DNA from: Turritopsis dohrnii
Lineage: Eukaryota > Cnidaria > Hydrozoa > Anthoathecata > Oceaniidae
Reading direction: 5' to 3'
NCBI GenBank assembly: GCA_027922465.2
Contig: BQMF02000009.1
Span: 62,001 to 126,000, forward strand
DNA length: 64,000 nucleotides
Position 1 is the stretch's first letter; each line of letters starts with the position of its first letter. Positions 20,961 through 57,713 of this stretch are shown one piece after another. Under the pieces are notes generated by a model. The model saw nothing but the letters and a program-made list of their open reading frames with translations, was not told where the DNA came from and did not search any database. Position numbers and translations under genes: made by a program.

Positions 20961-22605
20961 GTATTCCTGCGTAAGCAAGGAATACTTTGAAACCGTTCGT
21001 GTTTTTTTTGTTTTTTTTTTTTTTTTTTCACTGTCCAAACCTAGACCAATTTTTGTCGATGGGAAATAGCCACTCAAATCCTCTAAGTTCCAAACTTACA
21101 TTTTTTTATGTTTTAAATATGTTAACTCACACTACGTTCATTGTGTGCAAGTATTTTGCTTGAAAAGACTCTAAAGGTGTATAATATAAGCTCTACTGAA
21201 AGGAATAGTTGACATATGGCTAAATTGCAGATGCCAAGGTAGAAATGTTGTTTCATGTGAGTCTTATGCAACGTTCTTAAGTTTTCCGTAGTTGTTTTAA
21301 AAATGGAAGCGAAGAAGCACGCGTAGATCTGAGAAAATTTCTTTGTTGAATATATGGATATAGAAGAGGTTGTAGTACGGCTGTAAAACTTAAAAGAATC
21401 AAGAACATTTATGATCCAAACTGATAATCTACGTGAAACTAGTACTCTTAGTAGTTATTCGTGATAAATAAGCAGTTTTTGATGCTTCAAATCAGATATG
21501 AACGACTACAAAAACGGTATGCTTACATCGATTTAAAAAATTGCGTAAGGTTTCTATTAGTCTTTTTCTAAATATAATACAATTTTCTATTTCATGTTCC
21601 TAGGTAAGCTATCCTGTTTTTATAAAGCTCTGGAATCTTGAAGCACAGCTCATCTTCCTCATCAGCTTATACCCATTTTATTAATCAATAGATGACCACT
21701 TTTTTAATTGACTAGTCGAATTTAAAATATTGTATGATTCTAAAATTTGTATACTATCAAGCTGACGATAAAAAGGAAACACAGATATTTTTATCATTTC
21801 GTAAGGCCAAGTAAAAGTTTTTATTATGAAGTTCAGGTACAAACAACGTAAAGATTTTCATACTGTATAGTTTTAAAAGAAGTATTTTGAAACGTCCACG
21901 GAAGAGTGTTCTCTAATGGATTTTTAAACTGACGGTGTTCCTTTTTAAGCTTGATCTCCGGCAAAATTTTTCAAAGTTTCTTAACTTTTATAATGCTCTC
22001 GGGAATGTAATTAAATGAATTCGAAGTTATTACTATTTACGCCACAGATTTTCCCTTCAAAACTTAATGTGACAAAGTTTTCATTACTTAATTACTTTTT
22101 GAAGATGCTTTAGGGAATATAACTATGAATAAAATACTTTTTGAAAAAATCTCTAAATGATGCAAAACAGTGCAGTTTATATGAAATAACAAATATTACT
22201 TCTTTCACAGCTACAAGATAAACTGTAAAACACAAAGAACATCATACCACATTATGCATATTGTTTTAAACCGTGAACAAACATTCACCTTTTAAAGCAC
22301 AGATTATTCTTAACGCGATAATCTTTTAATTAGTTAATTGTTTCTTGAAGATGCTTTAGGGAGTGCAACTTCGAATGGAAATCTTTTTTGAAAAAATCTC
22401 TAAATTGATGCAAGACTGAAGTTTTATATGAGACAACAAAGTTTAATTGTTATCGTTGTTAAAAGGTAAAATGTAAAATACCGGAACATCATTCTGCATT
22501 ATGCATATCTTTTTAAAGCGTGAACTAACATTCATTTCTTTCTGAAAAGCCTCCAGAAAGTCTTCCAGTCATCTGCAGGAATACTTCTGCCCGGTAGGGC
22601 ATCTT
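20961..22605 (-). repeat. Dispersed 1.5-kb repeat S, copy S1
   Basis: On the minus strand this copy starts AAGATGCCCTACCGGGCAG, runs about 1.6 kb and ends GGTTTGGACAGTGAAA, a poly(A) run, then CACGAACGGTTTCAAAG with a terminal hairpin (GTATTCC...GGAATAC). The same unit occurs at 33273-34622 and three times in tandem at 42967-47592. Inside are two related ~235-bp blocks (TCCCTAAAGCATCTTC...). No coding frame is kept among copies. The poly(A) plus hairpin end suggests a retroposed or transposon-derived unit of unknown class. Confidence 0.85.
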
Positions 22606-22639
22606 GTTTATTGTGAATCAAAGCTTGAAGCGCTTGAAA

Positions 22640-30450: not shown

Positions 30451-31040
30451 ACTACTTGTAATTTAAACTTTATTTTATCTCCACATTTAATCATTCAACA
30501 TATATTATCAAAATGCCCAAGTGAAAGCACTTTTTTATGAAAAGAAATGAAACTGCTGAGTCAGCATTTTTTGCTCAGTGAATTTATTTATGTGGAAAAG
30601 ATCAGAAATCAAATTCTGACCAAAATTGAGGGGTTACATGTCACAAATAGTCGAAAATTAGCGAATTAAATTTATTTGAAAGATTTTTTCTAGTCCTTTT
30701 CTATGACGTCATCAAAAGTTTTAAGGACCTAAATAACCTCAGGACTAGATTTTCAGGCATATGTTTTCATGCAATGTTTGTTCCATTTTAAAAGATCTTT
30801 CGATTTATGTATAATAATATGACTTTTGAGAAGATAACATTTTTACTGACCGTAATTAATGACGTAATCAATCACGTGACATACAGGCATTTCCAAAAAA
30901 GTCACCTGGCAGATTTTAGTAGTATGAGGTCTCCTCTACCAAATTCCACTGAGAAAATAAACATTTCCCAGAACGTCAGGTTGTTAGGCTATGTGTCCTG
31001 TCTATCTCATTTCCAATTTTTTTTGCAAGTAGCTACCTGA

Positions 31041-33141: not shown

Positions 33142-33272
33142 AGGCCGATTTCCATTCAGGAAAATATCCGCGCGGACGTAGGTAATCCACGCTCAGTGAC
33201 TTAGAACGCATGCGTATTGGCTAATTCATAAGCGTAGTTATGTCCGCTCAGCGAGCAAAAATAAAGTTAAAC

Positions 33273-34622
33273 AAGATGCCCTACCGGGCAGAAGTATTCC
33301 TGCAGATGACTGGAAGACTTTCTAGAAAGATTTCAGAAAGAACTGATATTAGTTCACGCTTTAAAAAGATATGCATAATGCAGCATAATGATGTTGCGGT
33401 ATTTTACATTTTACCTTTTAACAACGATAACAATTAAACTTTGTTGTCTCATATAAAACTTGTTTCAATTTAGAAAGTCTTGCTTCAATTTAGAGATTTT
33501 TTAAAAAAGATTTTAATTCAAAGTTGTATTCCCTAAAGAATCTTCAAGAAGTAATTAAGTAATAAAAAGTTTGTCGCGTCAAGAAAAGTCTGTGCTTAAG
33601 AAGTAATAACTTCGAATTCATTTAATTACATTCCCGAGAGCATCATAAAAGTTAAGAGACTTTGAAAAATTTTGCCGGAGATCAAGCTTAAAAAGGAACA
33701 CCGTCAGTTTAAAAATCCATTAGAGAACACTCTTCCGTGGACGTTTCAAAATACTCCTTTTAAAACTATACAGTATGAAAATCTTTATGTTGTTTGTACC
33801 TGAACTTCATAATAAAAACTTTTACTTGGCCTTGCGAAATAATAAAAATATATGTGTTTCCTTTTTATCGTCAGCTTGATAGTATACAAATTTTAGAATC
33901 ATACAATATTTTAAATTCGACTAGTCAATTAAAAAAGTGGTCATCTACTCATTAATAAAATGGGTATAAGCTGATGAGGAAGATGAGCTGTGCTTCAAAA
34001 CTCCAGAGCTTTATAAAAACAGGATAGCTTACCTAGGAACATGAAATAGAAAATTGTATTATATTTAGAAAGACTAATAGAAACCTTACGCATTAAATCG
34101 ATATAAACATACCCTATTGGTAGTCGTTCATATCTGTTTTGAAGCATCAAGAACTGCTTATTTATCAAGAATGACTACTAAGAATATTAGTTTCACGTAG
34201 ATTATCAGTTTGGATCATAAATGTTCTTGATTCTTTTAAGTTTTACAGCCGTGCTACATCCTCTTCTATATCCATATATTCAACAAAGAAACTTTCACAG
34301 ATCTACGCATGCTTCTTCGCTTCCATTTTTAAAACAACTACGGAAAACGTAAGAACGTTGCATAAGACTCACATGAAACAGCATTTCTACCTTGGCATCT
34401 GCGATTTAGCCATATGTTAATTATTCCTTTCACTAGAGCTTATATTTTACACTTTTAGCGTCTTTTCAAGCAAAGTACTTGTATACAATGAATATAGTGT
34501 GAGTTTAGACTGTTAAATCATAAAAAGAATGTAAGTTGGGAACATTAATGATTTGAGTGGCTATTTCCCATCGACAAAAATTGGTCTAGGTTTGGACAGT
34601 GAAAAAAAAACAAAACAAAAAC
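33273..34622 (+). repeat. 1.5-kb repeat S, copy S2, with start of a further copy
   Basis: Begins AAGATGCCCTACCGGGCAG and ends GGTTTGGACAGTG followed by an A-rich run. It lacks one of the inner ~235-bp blocks of S3. Directly after it, 34623-34680 (AAGATGCCCTAACAGGCAAAC) starts another, truncated copy, so S2 was also part of a head-to-tail series. Confidence 0.88.
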
Positions 34623-34680
34623 AAGATGCCCTAACAGGCAAACGGATTTCTGCCAAATCTGCTGAAAAATGAAAAATAAA

Positions 34681-36708
34681 AGACCATGTGACTTGAAATT
34701 TGAAAGAGATTATATATATATATATGATTTCCAAAATAAAACATCACATTTCTAATCATGTCCTTCCAAGACATTGTCAAAGGATAACTGACACTATCTG
34801 AGATTTATAATGTACATACTGTCAATAAACTGGATTACATCTGAATTACATTATTATTATTATTAAATGTATTTCAGGGAAAAAATGGCTTTTTACCCAA
34901 TAAAAAATATAACAATAGATAAATACAATAAATACAATATAGTTAGTTAAAATTGGTATTCTTAGTTAAAATAAATTACTACATATGTGTGCATAAGAAG
35001 TCAGACAAGAAATAGACTCGCTGATGTTACATTCTTTATTTTGCTGGTACGAAACAGTATCAAGGATATATTGATCCTTGCAGATATCACAATGAATGAG
35101 CACATACTCATAAACTCTAAAAGATATGAATTTCTGAATTTGATAACTTTGTGTCAATCTTCCTAAATCACAAGCACAGAAAGGCACACAGATTTTGGTC
35201 ATGCAAAATACATATACATAGACCAAAATCAACATATAACTGAAATCAGACATTTTTGTTTTAGTTTGATTGATATGGCTTACACTCACAAACATTCTTA
35301 ATCTAAGTTGACATTCATGGCCTGTTTATAAAAATTCTTTAAGAAATTTGAAAATAAGGCTGAATGATTTTTACAACACAGCATTGCATTTCTGATCTCA
35401 TAGGCACCCCAGGACATTGTGAACGTGTAATCGACACTGTGTGATGACATAAACATCCTTTATTTTTGGGGAACCAAATATTACACTTTTATTGATCTTT
35501 TCAGATATCACAGTGATTTCGTATGTTAATCGTACTCTTTAAACATGTGATATGTACCGTCAATCTTCTTCATTATGAATGGTTTTCTCAATATTGAAAA
35601 CACAAAAAGTAAACAAAGATTTTGAAAGTAGCTATACTTATACGTACGTATACTTATTACGTATGGTATGTTCAAGCACACACATAAATTATATAAATGA
35701 AAGGAAAGTTTTGTATCGTGTTTCATGTGAAGTGTTCTGAATTTACAGACAGTTGGAAGATGTTTTAATTCGCTGATTAGGAAAGCCATTCATAATAAGG
35801 GACATTATCGACAGTGTATAACTTAAAAACTGATATAAAATATTAAAAACATTAAAGCATCAAACATTGAAAGTAAGTGGTGCAGAGAGTAGTCAAACAT
35901 TTTTGATGTTAGAACTTAACAGGAAACTGAGCTGAGCTTAAGTATCCAGAGCTTGAAAAGCATAACAGCCTATATACGAAACAAACAAAGATGTTTTCAG
36001 GCTTTTCAAGACATCTCAAGACATGTTTCCACTAAAAACAAACAAATATATACCTTTTTGACTCTTCTGTTTACAAAAAGTTGAGAATTTTGTTTTAGTT
36101 AGAAAAGAACGATCTGATCGCAACGAGTACGTTTTTCTCTCTATAAAAAATACAACGAACGAAAAAACTAAAAAGAATAAAACAGCCATAAATGGCCGTA
36201 ACTCAGCCGTCTTAACGAAAAATTGTGGGAATTAACTCACATTCGAAGTCTAACTACACAGACTCGCCTTTGCGTTTGTCTACATTTCGTATATAAGAAG
36301 AAAGGTAGCAGAAATCGGGATTTTAGAAAAAAAAAGTCGTTGTCAATTTCATCTGCTTTTTCTTTCCGAAAAAAATCAACTAATAAGAAGCTACAAAGGT
36401 TAAAGGTTATAACGTAAAAAAATGACAATCGAAAATCTAAAGAGTTTAATAAAACCAAAGGTGTAAAGATAGTAAAATATCTAACTGACAAAAAATACAC
36501 AAGTGTTTTTCAAAAAACTAGGTTCATGGAATCATCATATTTTTTATGATTCATAAATTTAGACAGCCAATAAATGAATGCGAAATGTACTTTGTCTAAA
36601 ACACATCAGTAATATAATAACTAAAATCAAAAAGGCGTCTAAGTGAAAAGGTTGAAGAAAAGCCATTTTACGCAACAGAAGACAAGTTCATGTGTGCGTC
36701 CGACTCAG
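34681..36708. other. Intergenic, no supported gene
   Basis: Contains a short (TA)n near 34715. Open frames at 34966-35295 and 35526-35789 (minus) have no recognised domain and an AT-rich random look. Confidence 0.45.
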
Positions 36709-37899
36709 TTAAACATTTATAGCAATAATCGCACCTCTGTTATCCAAATTCAGTTCGGTTGTATCGTCTTCTAGAAATACCTCCATAATTTCATCTATTG
36801 TGGTAGGTACAGTCAATTTTTTGGCTGCAAAATATTTGACAATATGCGTGTGATAAACATTCACAGTAGCTGAATCGAAAATCATTTTCATGCTGAACTG
36901 GTTTTCTAGGTTATTGCGTAAGCACACAATTCCACATCTAGTGCACTTAAACAATCGACTTTTATCTCCAGACGAAACATTTTGACTACAACGTGGACAT
37001 ACAACCCTTTGTTGCTCATTGAAAATTGAAGATGGCGGAAAATAAATTGATTTTATTCTCAATTCGAAAAGCGTGCTTTTAGCCTTGTTAATGTCAGTAG
37101 AGGAAGGTGTAAAGATTGTGTTGTGGTTTGTATTAAGCGAAACAGTTCCAAAGTAGTCGTTCACTACTGCACTTGTAATCAAATACACTCCATCGTTCTG
37201 AACTGACTTTATCCCATCACCCCACAATGTAACCTTTATTACACCCGTCTCATCATTAGCGGATAAATCTAACTTGTTTACAACTGCACCAGTTTTCCTT
37301 AACTTCGTAGGAATACTCGGACGACCTTCAACTGTGAGGTATGCTTCAAGTGATACTACATCTCGGTGAATTTTACTTTCTAATATTGACTTAATTGTCA
37401 GTAACTCCGACTTTGCATATTCAAATGATGGATTAACCACCTTCTCAATCTTTGAGTTATGTCCAATTTGAATATCTTCTGCTGTTGAATCGAAAAAGTT
37501 CATTTTTCTTTTCACCCCAGATAATTTGATAGGACTTCTCGTCTTGCAGCGTTTTCCAATTCGTCATGGTAGCTTTCATTAAAACAAACACCACGGAACG
37601 TTTTGGTAGGCGATTGTAGCTGCAAGTTAAAATATTTCAAATTTTGATTTTTCTTGGTATGCTTCACTGATGTCACATTATGTACATAAGCAACGAGATC
37701 TGCAAAATAACAATAAGTAAAATTGACATAGAAACATTATATTCCAATGTCATTACAGTCAGACTGTTTATTTTTGAGACCAAAATATTGCAAAAAGACT
37801 TATGCATGCACATTGCCTACCAGCTGTATTCCCAAACATTTCTACGTTGCCTTGATTAAAGCTACCCAAAACTGATTTGATAATATTGTAAGTAGGCAT
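36709..37899 (-). CDS. RPA1-like OB-fold protein with zinc ribbon, two exons, one frameshift
   Basis: Exon 1 is 37821-37899 (ATG at 37899, MPTYNIIKS). A GT donor at 37820 and the acceptor TTTTGCAG before 37699 join it in frame as NTA-DLVAYVHNV. Exon 2 runs to 36709. It has OB-fold-like stretches (YFNLQLQSPTKTFRGVCF; ETGVIKVTLWGDGIKS) and a C-terminal zinc ribbon (CPRCSQNV, then CTRCGIVC). This is the layout of the single-strand DNA-binding domains of the large replication protein A subunit. One frame change near 37545, between ELENAAR and RSPIKLSGVKRKM, breaks the frame. It may be a mutation or a sequencing error. Relatives occur as repeated transposon-linked genes; a host origin is possible. 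Confidence 0.65.
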
Positions 37900-37984
37900 A
37901 GTTTCTTCACGAGACGTTACGATCACCCAAAAACCAGTGTTGCAGTAGTAGTTCGAGTGCAAACACTTTAAGCAGTATAAATAA

Positions 37985-38093
37985 AAACACACACTGGAAA
38001 CCTGCCCCCCGAATATATCAAACGTACTGGTAACTGTACGTTGCGGAAGGCACCAACTGGAAATGGACAGATGTTTATAGTTTAAGTGTACTG
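37985..38093. repeat. Left part of an array of TGGAAA-loop hairpins
   Basis: Motif ACTGGAAA (or ACTGGTAA) occurs at about 37993, 38026, 38055 and 38090. The copy at 38021-38042 is a perfect hairpin: stem AACGTAC/GTACGTT around the 8-base loop TGGTAACT. The last copy is cut by the transposon at 38094 and its other half is at 42140. The array lies just upstream of the RPA1-like gene, which is read away from it. Confidence 0.85.
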
Positions 38094-38114
38094 GGGTGAA
38101 TTGCACCAAAACTG

Positions 38115-38870
38115 TACCGTCCCGTCCGTCACACTGTTTTGTTATCCTGGGATGGACACACAAATATTTAAACTTACAGGCTGATGTTTTCCTGAAGGAT
38201 TCCATTTTTATACATATTTCTTTTATGTATTTGACACTGGCTTAGTATTGATTTTTCAAAAATGGCAAAAAAATGTTGAAATTTTCAAAATTTTTGAAAA
38301 TTTTGTGAAAAAATCATATTTTATCATGTGAGTTTTTTGTTTTACTGTCATGCAAGTCAACTTTGATGATTATTTTGTCATCTTTAGGACTTTAGCTTGA
38401 TTTTCAGGATACATTTTCAAGATTTATGTATTCCACCTTCTGGTACTCAAAAATTTTATAAAATCTATGTTTTGAAAACAAAATCTGTCCCGTCCGTCAC
38501 ATGGATGGTAAATAGTAGCATGTTGTGCAAATTTGACTCTTGTATGTTTTATTTTGTAAACTTTAATGTCTTAGAGGGGAGTTAAAGTAGTTTTGAATTG
38601 AAGATTATGTTTTTTGTTTTAGATATAGGTAGCAAACTCTGGCCAATTCGAATTGAAAACAAATTCTGTCCCGTCCGTCACAGCTATTTAATCGCCAATA
38701 TCTTGAGTTCTCTGGGGACTATCTAAATGAAATTATAGGATGTGGACGATATGCTGGGTCTTTTAGAAAGTGTTTCATTTATTGATTTGAACATCCTTTA
38801 CAATAAGGTCAGCCCTTTGAAATTGATGTCCCATCCGTCACACAATGTCCTGTCCGTCACACCAAATTTT
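38115..38870. repeat. Left subterminal motif cluster of the 4-kb transposon
   Basis: The 14-base motif GTCCCGTCCGTCAC appears in the terminal repeat and at about 38488, 38669, 38828 (GTCCCATCCGTCAC) and 38850 (GTCCTGTCCGTCAC), all in the same orientation. These are likely transposase binding sites. Confidence 0.9.
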
Positions 38871-39155
38871 CAAAACATGAAAAACAATGTTTTGTCAATA
38901 GGAGAGCATGACTGACTGATTTTATTAATAATTTTATGACTGTCTTTATTATATCAATGTTTTTTTCTCAATAGATTTATATTGGAACTTTAAATCCCAT
39001 GTGTATCAATTTCACATGAATTAGAATTCTAAAATTAGAATACTCCCAGGAATTAATTCCCTAGTTAATTAAAAAGAATAGTATAGAATATATATAGATT
39101 TATGTAGAGTTTATAAGTGTTTTATGAAAAGGTTTCTGTAAAGGGTGTGTTAAGG

Positions 39156-41467
39156 ATGGAGACTTTGGCAAAGAAATATGAGAGGATAAAGAAAGAAGCA
39201 GCAAGGAGGCAGAAGAAATGTCGAGAGAACATATATATGGATGAAGAGAGGCATAAAAGGTATAAAGCGAAAGATGCTGAGAGGAAGAAGAAAGAAAGAG
39301 AAAGGAAAAAAACCACCACATCGAAAAATAAAAGCAATGAAGAGAGGGAGAAAGAAAGACTGAGAAAAAGAGCATACAGATTGAGAAAAAAGATTGAATC
39401 AAAAAAACTCTACCAAAAACACCAGAGGATATTAGAAATGACTGCCGAAGAAAAACTATTGCATCTGTTAATCGCACACGACGTAAATATGAAAAGAAAA
39501 TTGATGAGTTGAAAAAGAAACTAAAAGAATCATCTGCTGCTTCATAATCAACTCCATCACCAAGCCAACCATCTACACCTACTCAAACACTCCAAGTGTC
39601 TTCAATGATATGGAAAAGCCTCACCCCAATTTCTCGTAGGAAAAGTAAAATGAACTTACAGGAGGTTCTTCAAAGTTTACCAGCAGGAACAAATGTACAG
39701 TTTAGGAAAGAGGTTGGCGTCAATCTGTCGAACGAGCTTACAAGTGACAGAAGTGCACGAAAGTCTTTAGAACATGAACTTAAAGAATTCTTTGACAGAG
39801 AAGATGTATCCAAGGTTGCGCCAGACACAAAGAAAACTGTCAGTGATCCATGTGACCCAACCAAAAAAGTACAGGTCCGCTATCAGCTAGGATACAAAAA
39901 AACCCTTTTCTACAAGTTTTTGGCAGAGACCGGTACTGACTGTTGCTATGAAACATTTTCACGACACGTGCCCTTCTACGTCAAAAAAGCAAACCCATCT
40001 GATTGGGGTACATGTCTCTGCATGGCGTGCCTTAATCCTCAGCTCAAAGTTCAAAAGTTAATGGCGCTTAAATTGATTCCAAATGTAAATATCGAGAATG
40101 TAGTAGGTGACGAATATGAGTTCCAAGATTTGCTGGATATCCTGCGAAACCTCACTACAGGAGGTAACAACTCAAATACCAAACTAAATGTTGTGGAATG
40201 GAATAAAGTTCCCTATTTGAATAACAAACGCAAAACATCATATTTGTCACGCAAGGAAAACAAATCGTTTATGCTGAAGGATCTCATTGAAAAATTAATT
40301 CAAGAGCTGAATTTCCTGAAAGATCACCTTCACCGTGCTCATATGCAATTCCGGGAATTCAAGCGAAAAAGGAATCAAGCTGTTGAAAACGACAATGTAG
40401 TCACAATGCAAGTTGATTGGTCTGAAAATTCTAAAGTCCGGCAAGCACAAGAGGAAAACTCAGCATATTATCATCAGGACCAAATCTCAATCCATCCTGT
40501 GTATGTTTGGTCAAAAAAAGGAGAATTTTCACATGCTGCCTTGTCTGATGCTACAGATCACAGAGCTGGAGCTGTTTTTGCCAGTTTGAGCCCAATTTTT
40601 ATGAGGTATATTGAATCCGGAGCAAATCATATCAATGTCATTTCCGATTCTCCTACAAGCCAGTATAGGAACAAAAAGATCTTTTGGCTGATGGAAGAGC
40701 TGTGTAAGCAACACAAAGTCTCTATGGAATGGGTGTATATGGAGAGTGGCAAAGGAAAAGGTATTCCAGATGGTATTGGTGCTGTGTGCAAACGTGCCAT
40801 TACAGATATCATCAGCCATAATCCTGATACGCCTTTCCATTCATTGAAAGATTTTATGTCTTTTCTTCCTGAAATGATTCCGAACATATTGTTGACAACA
40901 TTTAATCAAGATGACATCGATGAGATAAACGATAGAGTACCTCTTTTATGAGCAGTGACTGGCACAACTCTATGCCATCATGTTTCAGCTGTATTCAAGG
41001 ATGGATTTGTTGAGCTAACCATGGGGGAGATGTCTTCAATGAAGGGCAAACCCTTCACCCTAAATAAGATTATCAAAAAGATCAAGAAGAAAAACCATGA
41101 AGATGATGAAGTTGATGATGAACCGGCAGATGAGGAAAAAGAAAGCGATGATGATGAGGTAGTAGAACAGGAGGAAGAGAATGACGACGATGATGAAAAT
41201 GATGAAGAGAATGAGGATGGTACAAATGATGAAGAGAACCAAGAGCAAGTAAAGATCGGTGATTATGTGAAAATAATAAAAGAACCATTTAAAAACTTTT
41301 ATGCAGTTATTTTGAACAATGGTTATGGTGACGAATGGGAGATACAATATTTTCGAAAAAAGGAGAAGTGGTGGGTGTTAAAAGAAAACGATTTTGACTC
41401 TCGGGAAAAAACAGATTTCAAAATTGTTTCCTGTCGGGTGGATGAAAGATCACATTATTACTTTTAA
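39156..41467 (+). pseudogene. Unclassified DDE-type transposase of the 4-kb transposon
   Basis: From ATG 39156 a basic N-terminal region (KDAERKKKERERKK) is followed, after a frameshift near 39455 and a TAA near 39545, by the main frame 39551-40948. A TGA at 40949 splits off the last part (40952-41467), which is in the same frame. Candidate catalytic residues are the aspartate of VDWSEN (about 40415), that of ISDSPTSQYRN (about 40645), and the glutamate or aspartate of MESGKGKGIPDGIGA (40742-40770). This D-D-E/D spacing fits an RNase H-like transposase. A cysteine cluster CLCMAC precedes it. The end has a long acidic stretch and then DYVKIIKEPFKNFYAVIL, which may be a small Tudor-like fold. 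The family is known to me only as uncharacterised repeat proteins. Confidence 0.75.
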
Positions 41468-41589
41468 GTATTTATACATTTATTTAAGAGATATATATAG
41501 TTAGAAGATATATTTTTGATTGAATTAATATAGCAATGACTTTAATCACCTTTTCTTCCAGGGCAATCTTATCATAATGGATTAAAGAA

Positions 41590-42115
41590 AATTTGTCCCG
41601 TCCGTCACACTTTGGTTATAACAGTTTTTCTTAGCTATGATATATAGTCTTTAACATTGCTAGTGGTTTGGATATTTATACAACCTGACTGCAATTATTC
41701 AGAGGGTAGTTTTGCATATTTCTAATGATGATTTCTTGTAAAAAAATTTAAAAAAGAGGCCAATTTCGTCAATTTTGTCCCGTCCGTCACACATTTTTCT
41801 TCACCTATTGTTTTTAAGATAATAATTCATAGAAAGGGACTTATCAGGTTGTTTTTGATTCCAAAAGGAGAAGAAAAAAAGTATATGTGTCTAATGAGAC
41901 CATTTCTTCCTGACTATAGAGAAACTTTAAGGTTTCTCTTGAAAATCAGTAATTTATCCTACCACCGGTCAACTGAGGGCATAAATTTAAGTTTTTGTCA
42001 AAAAAATTCGTTTTCGGTCATTTTCCCCAAAAACTAGACACAATGTAGTACCTTTTAAAAAAAAATTTGGATTATTTTAAGCAACTTGAAAATTTAGTGT
42101 GACGGACGGGACACG
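41590..42115. repeat. Right subterminal motif cluster of the 4-kb transposon
   Basis: GTCCCGTCCGTCAC occurs at about 41596 and 41778 in the same orientation as on the left, and once inverted (GTGACGGACGGGAC) in the right terminal repeat at about 42098. Two thirds of the sites therefore keep one orientation instead of mirroring. Confidence 0.9.
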
Positions 42116-42139
42116 GTACTGTTTTGGTGCAATTCACCC

Positions 42140-42430
42140 ACTGGAAACTGTACACTTCAGGAGGTGATACTTAATAAATAATAAACACACTGGAAAATGT
42201 GTGCCACAGTTATATTTCATAATATTACCAACGTACTGGAAATTGTACGTTGTAGGTGGTTTCAAGTGCACTGGAAACTGTACACTTCAAAAATATGGTA
42301 AGCAACAAACTCACTGGAAAAGTAGTGCCTAAAGTTGATGTTGTGTGTATAGTGCATCATATAAAGTCAACAAAAACTAGTAGAAAGAAATTTTTAAAAA
42401 TAACAAACACACTGGAAACAAGTATGGCTA
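42140..42430. repeat. Right part of the TGGAAA-loop hairpin array
   Basis: Copies of ACTGGAAA at about 42140, 42189, 42235, 42270, 42312 and 42411. Strong hairpins: 42186-42203 (CACAC/GTGTG, loop TGGAAAAT), 42229-42252 (CAACGTAC/GTACGTTG, loop TGGAAATT) and 42264-42287 (AAGTGCAC/GTACACTT with one mismatch, loop TGGAAACT). The loop is always 8 bases. Stems differ yet stay paired. Confidence 0.85.
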
Positions 42431-42966
42431 CAGTAAAAAAAAATAACTAAAAGTAAATTTGGGGGAACAAATAAGCAAAAACCAACCTCTTTCTCTTTCG
42501 TAACTGCTTCGTAAGGAACTCCACGCTTTAACTTGGGGAGAGCACAAGATTTACGACTTACACCATTTTGAAGAACCGTGCACTGCGCATGATGGAGGTG
42601 AAAGCGTGCAGCCTGGATACCGCGTGGGAAGGTTAGGCTCCGAAAAAAGTTCGACGACACGACAAAAAGAGGATTTTAATACTCAGCTGCCGTAAACGGC
42701 CGGCTGAGTAATAACATGCGTGATAAAAAGCCACGTGCGTGAACACAATACATTAATAAGAACATGGAACTTAATAAAAGCCATTGTACTGAAAATGAGC
42801 GTCACATATTTCAACACGATCACAGTTCAAGATAATTATAAGTTTCTTTTCTTCTTCAAAAAGGTTTCTTCCCGCTGACATGCATGGCATAGTGCTTTGG
42901 TTTCATGTAACCGCACGCATGAATTTTCAAAAAACCGCTAGGTTTGGACAGTAAGAAAAAGAAGAC
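42431..42966. other. Intergenic, no supported gene
   Basis: Frame 42394-42660 (minus) has no recognised domain. GGTTTGGACAGTAAGAAAAAG at 42943-42963 is the tail of a truncated S copy lying just before S3. Confidence 0.5.
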
Positions 42967-45900
42967 AAGATGCCCAACCGGGCAGAAGTATTCCTGCGGA
43001 TGACTGTAAGACTTTCTGGAGCCTTTTCAGAAAGAAATGAGTGTTAGTTCACGCTTTAAAACCATATGCATAATGCGGAATGATGTTTGCAGTATTTTAC
43101 ATTTTACCTTTTAGCTACGATAACTATTAAACTTTGTTGTTTCATATAAAACTTTAGTCTTGCATCAATTTAGAGATTTTTTTAAAAAAATTTCCATTTG
43201 AAGTTGCACTCCCTAAAGCATCTTCAAGAAGCAATTAACTAATTAAAAGATTATCGCGTTAAGAATAATCTGTGCTTTAAAAGGTGAATGTTTGTTCACG
43301 GTTTAAAACAATATGCATAATGTGGTATGATGTTCTTTGTGTTTTACAGTTTATCTTGTAGCTGTGAAAGAAGTAATATTTGTTATTTCACATAAACTGC
43401 ACTGTTTTGCATCATTTAGAGATTTTTTCAAAAAGTTTTTTATTCATAATTATATTCCCTAAAGCATCTTCAAAAAGTAATTAAGTAATGAAAACTTTGT
43501 CACGTTAAGTTTTGAATGGAAAATCTGTGGCGTAAATAGTAATAACTTCTAATTCATTTAATTACATTCCCGAGAGCATCATAAAAGTTAAGAGACTTTG
43601 AAAAATTTTGCCGGAGATCAAGCTTAAAAAGGAACACCGTCAGTTTAAAAATCCATTAGAGAACACTCTTCCGTGGACGTTTCAAAATACTTCTTTTAAA
43701 ACTATACAGTATGAAAATCTTTATGTTGTTTGTACCTGAACTTCATAATAAAAACTTTTACTTGGCCTTGCGAAATAATAAAAATATCTGTGTTTCCTTT
43801 TTATCGTCAGCTTGATAGTATACAAATTTTAGAATCATACAATATTTTAAATTCGACTAGTCAATTAAAAAAGTGGTCATCTATTGATTAATAAAATGGG
43901 TATAAGCTGATTAGGAAGATGAGCTGTGCTTCAAGATTCCAGAGCTTTATAAAAACAGGATAGCTTACCTAGAAACATGAAATAGAAAATTGTATTATAT
44001 TTAGAAAAAGACTAGTAGAAACCTTACGCATTTTTTTAAATCGATGTAAGCATACCGTTTTTGTAGTCGTTCATATCTGATTTGAAGCATCAAAAACTGC
44101 TTATTTATCACGAATAACTACTAAGAGTATTAGTTTCACGTAGATTATCAGTTTGGATCATAAATGTTCTTGATTCTTTTAAGTTTGACAGCCGTACAAC
44201 AACCTCTTCTATATCCATATATTCAACCAAGAAATTTTCTCAGATCTACGCGTGCTTCTTCGCTTCCATTTTTAAAACAACTACGGAAAACGTAAGAACG
44301 TTGCATAAGACTCGCATGAAACAACATTTCTACCTTGGCATCTGCGATTTAGCCATATGTTAATTATTCCTTTCACTAGAGCTTATATTTTACACTTTTA
44401 GAGTCTTTTCAAGCAAAGTACTTGTATACAATGAATATAGTGTGAGTTTAGACTGTTAAATCATAAAAAGAATGTAAGTTGGGAACATTGATGATTTGAG
44501 TGGCTATTTCCCATCGACAAAAATTGGTCTAGGTTTGGACAGTGAAAAAAAAAAAAAAAAACAAAAACGAGATGCCCTACCGGGCAGAAGTATTCCTGCG
44601 GATGACTGTAAGACTTTCTGGAGCCTTTTCAGAAAGAAATGAGTGTTAGTTCACGCTTTAAAACCATATGCATAATGCGGAATGATGTTTGCAGTATTTT
44701 ACATTTTACCTTTTAGCTACGATAACTATTAAACTCTGTTGTTTCATATAAAATTTCAGTCTTGCATCAATTTCGAGATTTTTTTAAAAAGATTTCCATT
44801 CGAAGTTGTACTCCCTAAAGTATCTTCAAGAAGCAATTAACTAATTAAAAGATTATCGTGTTAAGAATAATCTGTGCTTTAAAAGGTGAATGTGAAAGAA
44901 GTAATATTTGTTATTTCTAGAAACTGCACTGTTTTCATCATTTAGAGATTTTTTCAAAAACTTTTTTATTCATAGTTATATTCCCTAAAGCATCTTCAAA
45001 AAGTAATTAAGTAATGAAAACTTTGTCACATTAAGTTTTGAAGGGAAAATCTGTGGCGTAAATAGTAATAACTTCTAATTCATTTAATTACATTCCCGAG
45101 AGCATCATAAACGTTAAGAGACTTTGAAAAATTTTGCCGGAGATCAAGCTTAAAAAGGAACACCGTCAGTTTAAAATTCCATTAGAGAACACTCTTCCGT
45201 GGACGTTTCAAAATACTACTTTTAAAACTATACAGTATGAAAATCTTTATGTTGTTTGTACCTGAACTTCATAATAAAAACTTTTACTTGGCCTTGCGAA
45301 ATAATAAAAATATCTGTGTTTCCTTTTTATCGTCAGCTTGATAGTATACAAATCTTAAAATCATACAATATTTTAAATTCGACTAGTCAATTAAAAAAGT
45401 GGTCATCTATTGATTAATAAAATGGGTATAAGCTGATGAGGAAGATAAGCTGTGCTTCAAGATTGCAGAGCTTTATAAAAACAGGGTAGCTTATCTAGGA
45501 ACATGAATTAAAAAATTGTATTACATTTAGAAAGACTAATAGAAACCTTACGCATTAAATCGATATAAACATACCCTATTGGTAGTCGTTCATATCTGTT
45601 TTGAAGCGTCAAGAACTGCTTATTTGTCAAGAATGACTGCTAAGAATATTAGTTTCACGTAGATTATCAGCTTGGATCATAAATGTTCTTGATTCTTTTA
45701 AGTTTTACAGCTGTACTACAACCTCTTCTATATCCATATATTCAATAAAGAAACTTTCACAGATCTACGCATGCTTCTTCGCTTCCATTTTTAAAACAAC
45801 TACGGAAAACTTAAGAACGTTGCATAAGACTCACACGAAACAACATTTCTACCTGGCATCTGCGATTTAGCCATATGTTAGTTATTCCTTTCACGAGAGC

Positions 45901-47592
45901 TTATATTTTACACTTTTAGAGTCTTTTCAAGCAAAGTAGTTGTATACAATGAATATAGTGTGAGTTTAGACTGTTAAATCATAAAAAGAATGTAAGTTGG
46001 TAACATTATTGATTTGAGTGGCTATTTCCCATCGACAAAAATTGGTCTAGGTTTGGACAGTGAAAAAAAAAAAAACAAGATGCCCTACCGGGCAGAAGTA
46101 TTCCTGCAGATGACTGTAAGACTTTCTGGATCCTTTTCAGAAAGAAATGAGTGTTAGTTGACGCTTTAAAACCATATGCATAATGCGGAATGATGTTTGC
46201 AGTATTTTACATTTTACCTTTTAGCTACGATAACTATTAAACTTTGTTGTTTCATATAAAACTTCAGTCTTGCATCAATTTAGAGATTTTTTTAAAAAGA
46301 TTTCCATTCGAAGTTGTACTCCCTAAAGCATCTTCAAGAAGCAATTAACTAATTAAAAGATTATCGTGTTAAGAATAATCTGTGCTTTAAAAGGTGAATG
46401 TGAAAGAAGTAATATTTGTTATTTCATATAAACTGCACTGTTTTGCATCATTTAGAGATTTTTTCAAAAAGTTTTTTATTCATAGTTATATTCCCTAAAG
46501 CATCTTCAAAAAGTAATTAAGTAATGAAAACTTTGTCACATTAAGTTTTGAATGGAAAATCTGTGGCGTAAATAGTAATAACTTCGAATTCATTTAATTA
46601 CATTCCCGAGAGCATCATAAACGTTAAGAGACTTTGAAAAATTTTGCCGGAGATCAAGCTTAAAAAGGAACACCGTCAGTTTAAAAATCCATTAGAGAAC
46701 ACTCTTCCGTGGACGTTTCAAAATACTCCTTTTAAAACTATACAGTATGAAAATCTTTATGTTGTTTGTACCTGAACTTCATAATAAAAACTTTTACTTG
46801 GCCTTGCGAAATAATAAAAATATCTGTGTTTCCTTTTTATCGTCAGCTTGATAGTATACAAATTTTAGAATCATACAATATTTTAAATTCGACTAGTCAA
46901 TTAAAAAATTGGTCATCTATTGATTAATAAAATGGGTATAAGCTGATGAGGAAGATGAGCTGTGCTTCAAGATTCCAGAGCTTTATAAAAACAGGGTAGC
47001 TTATCTAGGAACATGAATTAAAAAATTGTATTACATTTAGAAAGACTAATAGAAACCTTACGCATTAGATCGATATAAACATACCCTATTGGTAGTCGTT
47101 CATATCTGTTTTGAAGCATCAAGAACTGCTTATTTATCACGAATGACTACTAAGAATATTAGTTTCACGTAGATTATCAGTTTGGATCATAAATGTTCTT
47201 GATTCTTTTAAGTTTTACAGCCGTACTACAACCTCTTCTATATCCATATATTCAACAAATAAACTTTCACAGATCTACGCATGCTTCTTCGCTTCCATTT
47301 TTAAAACAACTACGGAAAACGTAAGAACGTTGCATAAGACTCACATGAAACAACATTTCTACCTGGCATCTGCGATTTAGCCATATGTTAATTATTCCTT
47401 TCACTAAAGCTTATATTTTACACTTTTAGAGTCTTTTCAAGCAAAGTACTTGTATACAATGAATATAGTGTGAGTTTAGACTGTTAAATCATAAAAAGAA
47501 TGTAAGTTGGGAACATTAATGATTTGAGTGGCTATTTCCCATCGACAAAAATTGGTCTAGGTTTGGACAGTGAAAAAAAAAAAAAAAAAAAC
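42967..47592 (+). repeat. Head-to-tail array of three 1.5-kb S repeats (S3-S5)
   Basis: Starts are at 42967, 44571 and 46080. Each begins GATGCCC(T/A)ACCGGGCAG and ends GGTTTGGACAGTG plus an A-run of 13-19 bases (the end of one copy leading directly to the next). S3 keeps both inner ~235-bp blocks in full. S4 and S5 share a deletion after AAAAGGTGAATGTGAAAGAAG. The A-run at each junction suggests that the repeating unit includes its poly(A), as in tandem retro-insertions or rolling-circle amplification. Confidence 0.92.
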
Positions 47593-47756
47593 AAAAAAAA
47601 CACGAACGGTTTCAAAGTATTCCTTGCTTACGCAGGAATACAAAAACACGAACGGTTTCAAAGTATTCCTTGCTTACGCAGGAATACAAAAAAAAACACG
47701 AACGGTTTCAAAGTATTCCTTGCTTACGCAGGAATACAAAAATTTTAACTTTTTTT
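47593..47756 (+). repeat. Triplicated terminal hairpin of the S array
   Basis: CACGAACGGTTTCAAAG, followed by a hairpin (GTATTCC, loop TTGCTTACGCA, GGAATAC) and A-rich spacer, repeats at 47601, 47647 and 47697 (period 46-50 bp). The single copy of the same ending occurs in S1 at 20961-21000 on the minus strand. Confidence 0.9.
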
Positions 47757-57120: not shown

Positions 57121-57378
57121 ATGATATCTCAAGATGACAAGATTATGAATAACCTGATAAATCTGAAGGGTCAAGAAATGTACCGAGGTCTAAGTGTTAC
57201 CGATGACTATACGCAAAAACAAAGACAAACCATTAAACATTGGGTGGAAAAAGCCAAACAAAAAAATGACGACGAAGCAACCGACACAAAATATATCTGG
57301 AGAGCGCGTGGTACTCCAAAAAACGGAATGTTCTTAAAGAAGTTGCTGAAGCGGAGCCCTACAGTCTTGCTACAGTAA
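57121..57378 (+). pseudogene. LINE ORF1 C-terminal domain
   Basis: Frame from ATG 57121: INLKGQEMYRGLSVTDDYT, RQTIKHWVEKAKQ and YIWRARGTPKNGMFLK. These phrases are typical of the C-terminal domain of ORF1 in a group of LINEs with EEP endonuclease. The frame stops at TAA 57376-57378. An A_AAA_AAC heptamer sits in phase at 57318-57324. Confidence 0.8.
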
Positions 57379-57713
57379 TTCAAGTAAACCAGTATAAGAA
57401 GAATCCACGAAGTAATGTTTTTGACAATAATGAGAGTGACGTAATTCACACAGAAAAGAAGTTTCAAATAGATTATTCGATTAAAGGAACAGCAAAGTGC
57501 AATGTATGCAAAAAACTAATACTGAAAAAAGATATCAGAATTGGAAAGCCAGTGCAATTCAAACCAAGATCCATAATCCGCTACTATCATCTTAAATGTG
57601 CCTTCAAATCATTTATGCTAGCTAAAAATCCTACGGATGTTATTGACGATGTATGTGAATTAGAAGGCTTCGACAAAATTGAAGAAAATGACAAAATCTA
57701 CATCAGATACTAG
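57318..57713 (+). CDS. PARP-type zinc finger open frame in LINE context
   Basis: In the -1 frame relative to ORF1, an open stretch reads NVLKEVAEAEPYSLATV, then a zinc finger: CNVC, 26 residues, HLKC, followed by DDVCELEGFDKI. C-x2-C-x(26-30)-H-x2-C with a trailing DDLEGWxxL-like phrase is the pattern of PARP-type zinc fingers, which sense nicked or broken DNA. It ends at TAG 57711-57713, and the endonuclease frame that follows is in the same phase. It could be the end of ORF1 after a frameshift or the start of ORF2 with a nonsense mutation. No initiator is obvious. Confidence 0.65.
   Translation, partial: KKRNVLKEVAEAEPYSLATVIQVNQYKKNPRSNVFDNNESDVIHTEKKFQIDYSIKGTAKCNVCKKLILKKDIRIGKPVQFKPRSIIRYYHLKCAFKSFMLAKNPTDVIDDVCELEGFDKIEENDKIYIRY

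What the first reader, a model, noticed from the sequence alone, without database searches (positions are those of the whole stretch)
37985..42430. Array of small hairpins with a constant 8-base TGGAAA-type loop and covarying stems
Nine copies of ACTGG(A/T)AA lie 28-60 bp apart once the inserted transposon is removed (one gap is about 100 bp). Five of them form hairpins with an 8-base loop (TGGTAACT, TGGAAACT, TGGAAAAT, TGGAAATT, TGGAAACT), while the stems differ: AACGTAC, AAGTGTAC, CACAC, CAACGTAC, AAGTGCAC. Four pair perfectly on the other side and one has a single mismatch. Paired changes with a fixed loop suggest selection for the folded form (RNA or cruciform) or palindromic binding sites. 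The array sits directly upstream of an RPA1-like gene. I know no described family with this pattern.
Basis: partly seen in the sequence, partly recalled or inferred. Interest (0 to 1): 0.85.

Follow-up and report, generated by a model that had tools for sequence, protein, structure and literature searches.

The report
Repeat array in a rolling-circle transposon
The row of small hairpin-like repeats belongs to a mobile DNA element, a relative of Helitrons, where similar rows lie just before the replication gene; it is probably a set of protein binding sites, and the element itself is of a known kind.

Summary
In detail: nine ACTGGWAA copies, five in hairpins with an 8-base loop, one split by a 4-kb transposon. 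The host genome shows what carries them: a Helentron-type rolling-circle transposon. The window holds an internally deleted copy (36176-42714, minus strand: 5' end, array, first Rep exon, RPA-like gene, 3' end). A copy on contig C492 spans 10.2 kb between the same ends with array, Rep, PIF1 helicase, endonuclease-like domain and RPA-like gene. Of 11 Rep loci examined, 10 have such units upstream of Rep, same orientation; all ten were fetched because they hold the motif. Conversely, all 18 multi-hit sites among the 100 listed motif places lie beside Rep or RPA-like matches. Spacers clearly change faster than units in one of three comparisons; loops change least in all three. The covarying stems hold poorly: matching units show 12 broken pairs, 0 compensated. 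Best reading: iteron-like binding sites in the Rep promoter region, for Rep or a host factor. New feature of a known kind; four Helitron-directed literature searches showed none like it.

The parts
36176..42714 (-). Whole element: internally deleted Helentron-type transposon (5' end at 42714, 3' end at 36176); about 2.5 kb without the later insert
   Evidence: Matches at 97-99% identity in L353, L354, L358, L359 reach both ends within a few bases (36170-36177 and 42712-42715); L352 reaches only the 5' end and starts at 37311
42681..42714 (-). 5' end with palindrome and subterminal inverted repeat ACTCAGCCG
   Evidence: Same 34 bases in L348, L352, L354, L358, L359; L353 differs (7 mismatches counted without gaps)
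36176..36211 (-). 3' end: inverted copy CGGCTGAGT, then palindrome GCCATTTATGGC close to the terminus
   Evidence: Same 36 bases in L353, L354, L359, L361; L358 with 1 mismatch
37981..38093 (+). Array, low part: units at 37993, 38026, 38056 and first part of the split unit at 38090
42140..42430 (+). Array, high part: rest of the split unit, units at 42189, 42235, 42270, 42313, 42411
38021..38042 (+). Hairpin AACGTAC-TGGTAACT-GTACGTT
   Evidence: in the 8 window-type loci 4 have 7 pairs, 2 have 6 (L350, L357), 2 have 3 (L352, L354)
42186..42203 (+). Hairpin CACAC-TGGAAAAT-GTGTG
   Evidence: 5 pairs in all 8 window-type loci
42229..42252 (+). Hairpin CAACGTAC-TGGAAATT-GTACGTTG
   Evidence: 8 pairs in 6 of 8 window-type loci, 3 in L350 and L357
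42264..42287 (+). Hairpin AAGTGCAC-TGGAAACT-GTACACTT with one mismatch
   Evidence: left arm GTGCAC in all 8 window-type loci, right arm altered further in L350, L357 and L359
38094..42139 (+). Later DNA transposon inserted in one unit: inverted ends GGGTGAATTGCACCAAAAC, duplication ACTG; resembles Sola elements (recalled, not tested)
   Evidence: unit unbroken in six copies elsewhere
37771..37899 (-). Remnant of the first Rep exon (MPTYNIIKSVLGSFNQGN...), about 90 bp below the array
   Evidence: Frame; same letters as the start of the Rep ORF of L348, which carries Herpes_teg_N, DUF6570 and Helitron_like_N
37515..37736 (-). First OB-fold-like piece of the RPA-like gene
   Evidence: Frame; matches in L352-L354, L358, L359, L361 (95-100%) and L363 (42%); Pfam OB fold only E 0.23
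36709..37563 (-). RPA1-like ssDNA-binding protein ORF (OB fold and zinc ribbon)
   Evidence: NCBIfam replication factor A 4.1e-6; SSB chains E about 1e-3; no Pfam domain above cut-off; 149 matches in the genome

Best explanation
The array is a cis-acting region of a Helentron-type rolling-circle transposon. It lies upstream of the Rep-helicase start, a few hundred bases inside the 5' end. Read in the sense of Rep, a unit is a 16-bp imperfect palindrome GTAC-AGTTTCCA-GTAC with a nearly invariant asymmetric core TTTCCAGT. Most likely the units are cooperative, iteron-like binding sites for the element's own Rep or for a host transcription factor, and so set Rep expression and possibly the place where Rep loads near the 5' end. 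In the window the middle of the element was deleted, which left the array and the first Rep exon in front of the RPA-like gene, and a second transposon later split one unit. Shown: element identity, position, orientation, recurrence; constraint on the units is clear in one of three comparisons. Inferred: protein binding, which protein, regulation.
For: Element ends and near-identical copies. Contig C492: array, Helitron_like_N (111.8 bits), PIF1 (109.7 bits), endonuclease-like domain and RPA-like gene between the same ends. Units upstream of Rep in 10 of 11 loci examined, clusters on one strand only. Of the 100 listed motif places, grouped in 45 sites, all 18 sites with two or more hits are in Helentron context: 13 have an RPA-like match downstream on the same strand within 15 kb (chance per site about 0.003), the other 5 have Rep. 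In the C492 copy 8 of 9 gene-sense TT(T/A)CCAGT words lie in the array. L348 against L350: spacers changed at 18.2% of sites, arms 7.8%, loops 4.7%; loops change least in all three comparisons. 60 matches of the 14-mer against 4 of the reversed control.
Against: No protein is shown to bind. The ten loci were fetched because they hold the motif, so 10 of 11 is not the share of Rep genes with an array; the only one reached otherwise, L366, has no unit within 1 kb upstream of Rep, and the genome-wide Rep search did not complete. 26 of 45 listed motif sites, 21 of them single hits, have no RPA-like match downstream. L345 against L341: spacers 4.3%, arms 4.5%; L342 against L343: without gaps spacers change no faster than arms (8 of 129 against 10 of 128). 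Tandem repeats are common in non-autonomous Helentrons (PMC4067079, passages), and tandem copying in the L342-L344 arrays could imitate conservation.
Confidence: 0.57

Rival explanations
1. Folded hairpins are the functional form: in the leader RNA of Rep, or in the single-stranded transposition intermediate, a protein (Rep or the RPA-like protein) reads the 8-base loop and needs the stem.
For: Nearly invariant loop and several distinct paired stems (CGTAC/GTACG, GTGTAC/GTACAC, CACAC/GTGTG, ATAC/GTAT). 37 of the 62 collected units: covariation score 0.254 against 0.172, 0 of 500 shuffles. 62 units in 9 loci, arms shuffled inside arrays: 269 pairs against 249.2, 6 of 20,000; five loci L348, L342, L345, L347, L349: 136 against 123.8, 102 of 20,000. 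Window copies fold better as minus-strand RNA (Stouffer z -5.2 against -1.9).
Against: 0 compensated and 12 broken pairs in three comparisons of matching units. No arm signal in L342/L343/L356. Sliding the partner by 2 columns gives nearly the same score, 0.240, and those shuffles ignore relatedness. Wobble pairs favour neither strand consistently: 29 in gene sense against 18 on the other strand over nine loci, while the window alone favoured the gene-sense strand.
Confidence: 0.22
2. The paired arms are a mutational product: template switching in replication copies one arm on the other and keeps palindromes without selection for folding.
For: Mechanism described in PMC8794818 (abstract and passages seen). 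Would explain paired unit classes concentrated in one family.
Against: Does not explain the invariant core or the place upstream of Rep; no paired change in the three comparisons.
Confidence: 0.15
3. A neutral tandem repeat, like the central repeats of non-autonomous Helentrons.
For: L342-L344 arrays are nearly uniform with a period of 35-36 bp. Constraint is clear in only one of three comparisons.
Against: Window-type units are unevenly spaced and alike only over pieces of 12-26 bases; in L348 against L350 spacers change faster than units; same orientation and place upstream of Rep in families whose Rep matches are mostly about 45-65% identical to L348.
Confidence: 0.15

Closest known systems
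[quoted passage not shown]
   Same: Rep, PIF1 helicase and endonuclease-like domain in one element, RPA-like gene, subterminal inverted repeats, 3' palindrome, shorter derivatives that share the ends (features from PMC4067079 passages)
   Different: An array of 16-bp imperfect palindromes upstream of Rep; not mentioned in the passages of PMC4067079 that I saw (the whole text was not read)
Iterons of rolling-circle plasmids and geminiviruses (recalled)
   Same: Short direct repeats close to the Rep gene and the replication start
   Different: Binding not shown; the repeats are partly palindromic and lie in a eukaryotic transposon
Baculovirus homologous regions (hr)
   Same: Arrays of imperfect palindromes serving as enhancer and origin (recalled; search listing with abstracts only)
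   Different: Carrier is a rolling-circle transposon

Membership tests
Helentron | Helitron Rep domain with PIF1-type helicase | tested here: met
   In the C492 copy, in two overlapping frames: Helitron_like_N 6.1e-32, PIF1 2.1e-31. Deleted from the window copy.
Helentron | Endonuclease domain fused behind the helicase | tested here: inconclusive
   L361 ORF 2221-3363 joins UvrD_C_2 (0.0013, below cut-off) and Exo_endo_phos (5.9e-5, 23.4 bits, cut-off 24.5)
Helentron | RPA-like ORF in the same element | tested here: met
   98% identical RPA-like gene between the same ends in C492; replication factor A similarity
Helentron | Subterminal inverted repeats | tested here: met
   ACTCAGCCG 5 bases from the 5' end, CGGCTGAGT 25 bases from the 3' end; 9 bp here, where PMC4067079 gives 12-15 bp and 38-60 bases from the 3' end in mites
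Helentron | Palindrome near the 3' end | tested here: met
   GCCATTTATGGC ends 9 bases from the 3' end, in the window and 5 other copies
Helentron | Insertion in T-rich sequence without target duplication | tested here: inconclusive
   Most copies have TT at both ends (L353 and L358 differ at one end) and no duplication is evident in the flanks, but no empty site was looked for
Canonical Helitron | 5' TC and 3' CTRR ends (recalled) | tested here: not met
   Ends are TTATTACTC and GTTTTATT
RNA family with covarying hairpin | Compensatory changes between matching copies | tested here: not met
   0 changed and still paired, 12 broken in three comparisons; no Rfam family at gathering threshold and only an unrelated weak match at 30636-30749
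Iteron array | Bound by Rep | not testable with these tools
   Needs purified protein

The most novel reading that the evidence does not exclude
Rolling-circle transposons of the Helentron kind carry a replication and promoter control region like the iterons of plasmids: a variable-number array of partly palindromic units upstream of Rep, whose 8-base centre is read as a hairpin loop in single-stranded DNA by the element's own Rep or RPA-like protein, so that the array senses copy number or loads the replication complex.
Probability: 0.2. Interest if true: 0.75.

Novelty: new variant of a known kind. Interest (0 to 1): 0.5.

Why it matters
How Helitron-class elements choose their 5' start and control Rep is poorly understood (own knowledge). 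An array upstream of Rep that recurs in several families is a defined target for a binding test, and its retention in short derivatives with an RPA-like gene shows which pieces the element family keeps.

Tried and rejected
A 16-mer scan of viral contigs gave 99 hits, about what I estimate by hand for chance; no control was run. The RPA-like protein had no relative at E 1e-3 in the protein database (388 candidates) or in viral contigs. A single-sequence structure model was too poor to use (mean pLDDT 31), so no fold search was made. I first took 34621-42952, flanked by 1.5-kb repeats with similar ends, as the element; copies elsewhere put the ends at 36176 and 42714. Strand-specific RNA folding looked convincing in the window alone, but the wobble bias did not hold in other families.
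Full report
OBSERVATION. The array is as described: nine ACTGGWAA copies on the + strand between 37993 and 42418, one split by an insert. In the 8-base-loop register five copies pair 7, 8, 5, 8 and 7 of 8 positions and the other four 0, 2, 3 and 0. Contiguous stems of 5 or more around an 8-base loop occur at 115 of 63,940 window positions. A covariance model of the nine units gives 7 matches in the window, all in the array; two of its own units are not recovered. Rfam has no match at gathering threshold.

INSERT. The 4-kb insert 38094-42139 has inverted ends GGGTGAATTGCACCAAAAC and a duplicated ACTG. Its ORF recalls Sola transposases; this is recall and was not tested. Six other copies of the array have the unit unbroken (L348, L352, L353, L354, L358, L359).

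WHAT CARRIES THE ARRAY. When the host genome could be searched (436 Mb, 891 contigs; window = C9:62001-126000), the 14-mer TACTGGAAACTGTA had 60 matches against 4 for the reversed control, many in clusters. I fetched 20 regions around part of these matches. Eight have the window's layout with 7 to 9 units (L348, L350, L352-L354, L357-L359), six have other arrays with clusters of 5 to 11 (L341-L346), five have two or three units (L347, L349, L351, L356, L360), and L355 showed no cluster. Matches at 97-99% identity in L353, L354, L358 and L359 reach from about 36176 to about 42714; L352 shares only the 5' part from 37311 on. These are the ends of a mobile element, 2.5 kb without the insert. On contig C492 the same two ends lie 10.2 kb apart (C492:11458 to 21670), with the array, an ORF with Herpes_teg_N, DUF6570 and Helitron_like_N, a PIF1 helicase in an overlapping frame, a helicase C-terminus joined to an endonuclease-like domain, and the RPA-like gene at 98% identity. 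The window copy has kept the first Rep exon (MPTYNIIKSVLGSFNQGN...) and the RPA-like gene and lost what lies between. By genes and ends this is a Helentron as given in PMC4067079 (passages and section 6 seen); the endonuclease match is just below Pfam's cut-off and the target site is not proved. Canonical Helitron ends are absent.

ARRAY AND REP. I examined 11 loci with a Rep match. In 10 of them gene-sense units of the type GTAC-AGTTTCCA-GTAC lie upstream of Rep; the nearest clear unit is about 105-180 bp from the start of the Rep match, with weaker words at 51-55 bp in L341, L345 and L349 (the start was estimated for L341 and extrapolated by 17 residues for L343 and L344). These ten were fetched because they hold the motif, so this is not a frequency. 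The eleventh, L366, has none within 1 kb. In each locus clusters were found on one strand only, the one that makes the unit read TTTCCAGT in the sense of Rep. In the C492 copy 8 of 9 gene-sense TT(T/A)CCAGT words are in the array, 329-653 bases from the 5' end; two ACTGGWAA words on the same strand lie elsewhere in it. With up to 2 mismatches the 16-mer has 902 matches against 275 for the control; only 100 were listed. These 100 form 45 sites: 19 of 45 have an RPA-like match downstream on the same strand within 15 kb, 13 of 18 among sites with two or more hits and 6 of 27 among single hits; chance is about 0.003 per site (with 137 of 149 RPA places). The five multi-hit sites without RPA (C127, C202, C322, C51:926514, C604) have Rep matches. 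Many of the single hits are probably chance.

CONSTRAINT. L348 against L350 (about 85% identical there): spacers changed at 18.2% of 209 sites, arms 7.8% of 128, loops 4.7% of 64. L342 against L343: 28.4% of 169, 7.8% of 128, 1.6% of 64, but 40 of the 48 spacer changes are gaps, and without gaps spacers (8 of 129) change no faster than arms (10 of 128). L345 against L341: 4.3% of 93, 4.5% of 112, 1.8% of 56. L357 gave the same figures as L350 and is not counted. So loops change least in all three; a clear excess in spacers is seen in one.

STEMS. A3, 37 of 62 collected units, from six loci: covariation score 0.254 against 0.172, 0 of 500 shuffles, though a slide by 2 columns gives 0.240 and the shuffle ignores relatedness. 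Nine units of the window alone (A2): 10 of 500 shuffles reach the score. Arms shuffled only inside each array (62 units, nine loci): 269 pairs against 249.2, reached 6 times in 20,000; L348 alone 157 times; L342, L343 and L356 together 5,221; L345, L341 and L349 together 1,185; L350 alone 3,161. In the window's nine units 1,383 of 100,000, and 322-720 of 5,040 with one copy of each near-duplicate left out. Against: in the three comparisons, 99 pairs were unchanged, 12 broken, 0 changed and still paired, 5 gained. So distinct paired stems exist, mainly in one family, but recent evolution does not keep them.

MECHANISM. The nearly invariant, asymmetric core, the partial GTAC symmetry, the repeated same-way layout and the place close to Rep fit cooperative binding sites of a promoter or iteron-like region. 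Binding, the binder and the effect are inference. The hairpin in single-stranded DNA or RNA stays open.

LIMITS. The genome search was unreachable most of the time, so the share of all Rep genes with an array is unknown. No transcripts were available.

Noticed in passing
window 33271-34601, 42965-44544, 44567-46062, 46075-47572 and, reversed, 21028-22607: 1.3-1.6 kb repeats with common ends, a terminal hairpin TGCCCGGTAGGGCA and, beyond, GTATTCCTGC / GCAGGAATAC inverted repeats and T-runs; they look like another family of short Helentron derivatives in tandem.
   Followed up: partly
window 47601-47737 and 20961-21001: 41-bp unit with a 25-bp palindrome GTATTCCTTGCTTACGCAGGAATAC, three copies in tandem and one elsewhere, next to the 1.5-kb repeats.
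   Followed up: partly
window and 14 further places (C731, C56, C223, C633, C57, C527, C225, C263, C51, C272, C163, C455, C295, C313): In 15 places an RPA-like match lies within 2 kb downstream of array units, as in the window: probably a multiplied derivative that keeps array and RPA-like gene. Only some of these were read.
   Followed up: partly
L361 4127-5124 and window 37515-37736 / 36709-37563: The RPA-like gene changes reading frame between its first and second part in both copies; copies may be decayed or an intron may be missed.
   Followed up: no
window 57270-57710: zf-PARP domain (5.5e-15); the next ORF looks like a retrotransposon endonuclease by eye, not tested.
   Followed up: no
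L350 and L357, about 4945-7036 in L350: Pieces of window 34620-35969 lie in the opposite orientation next to the array there (72-78% identity); not explained.
   Followed up: no
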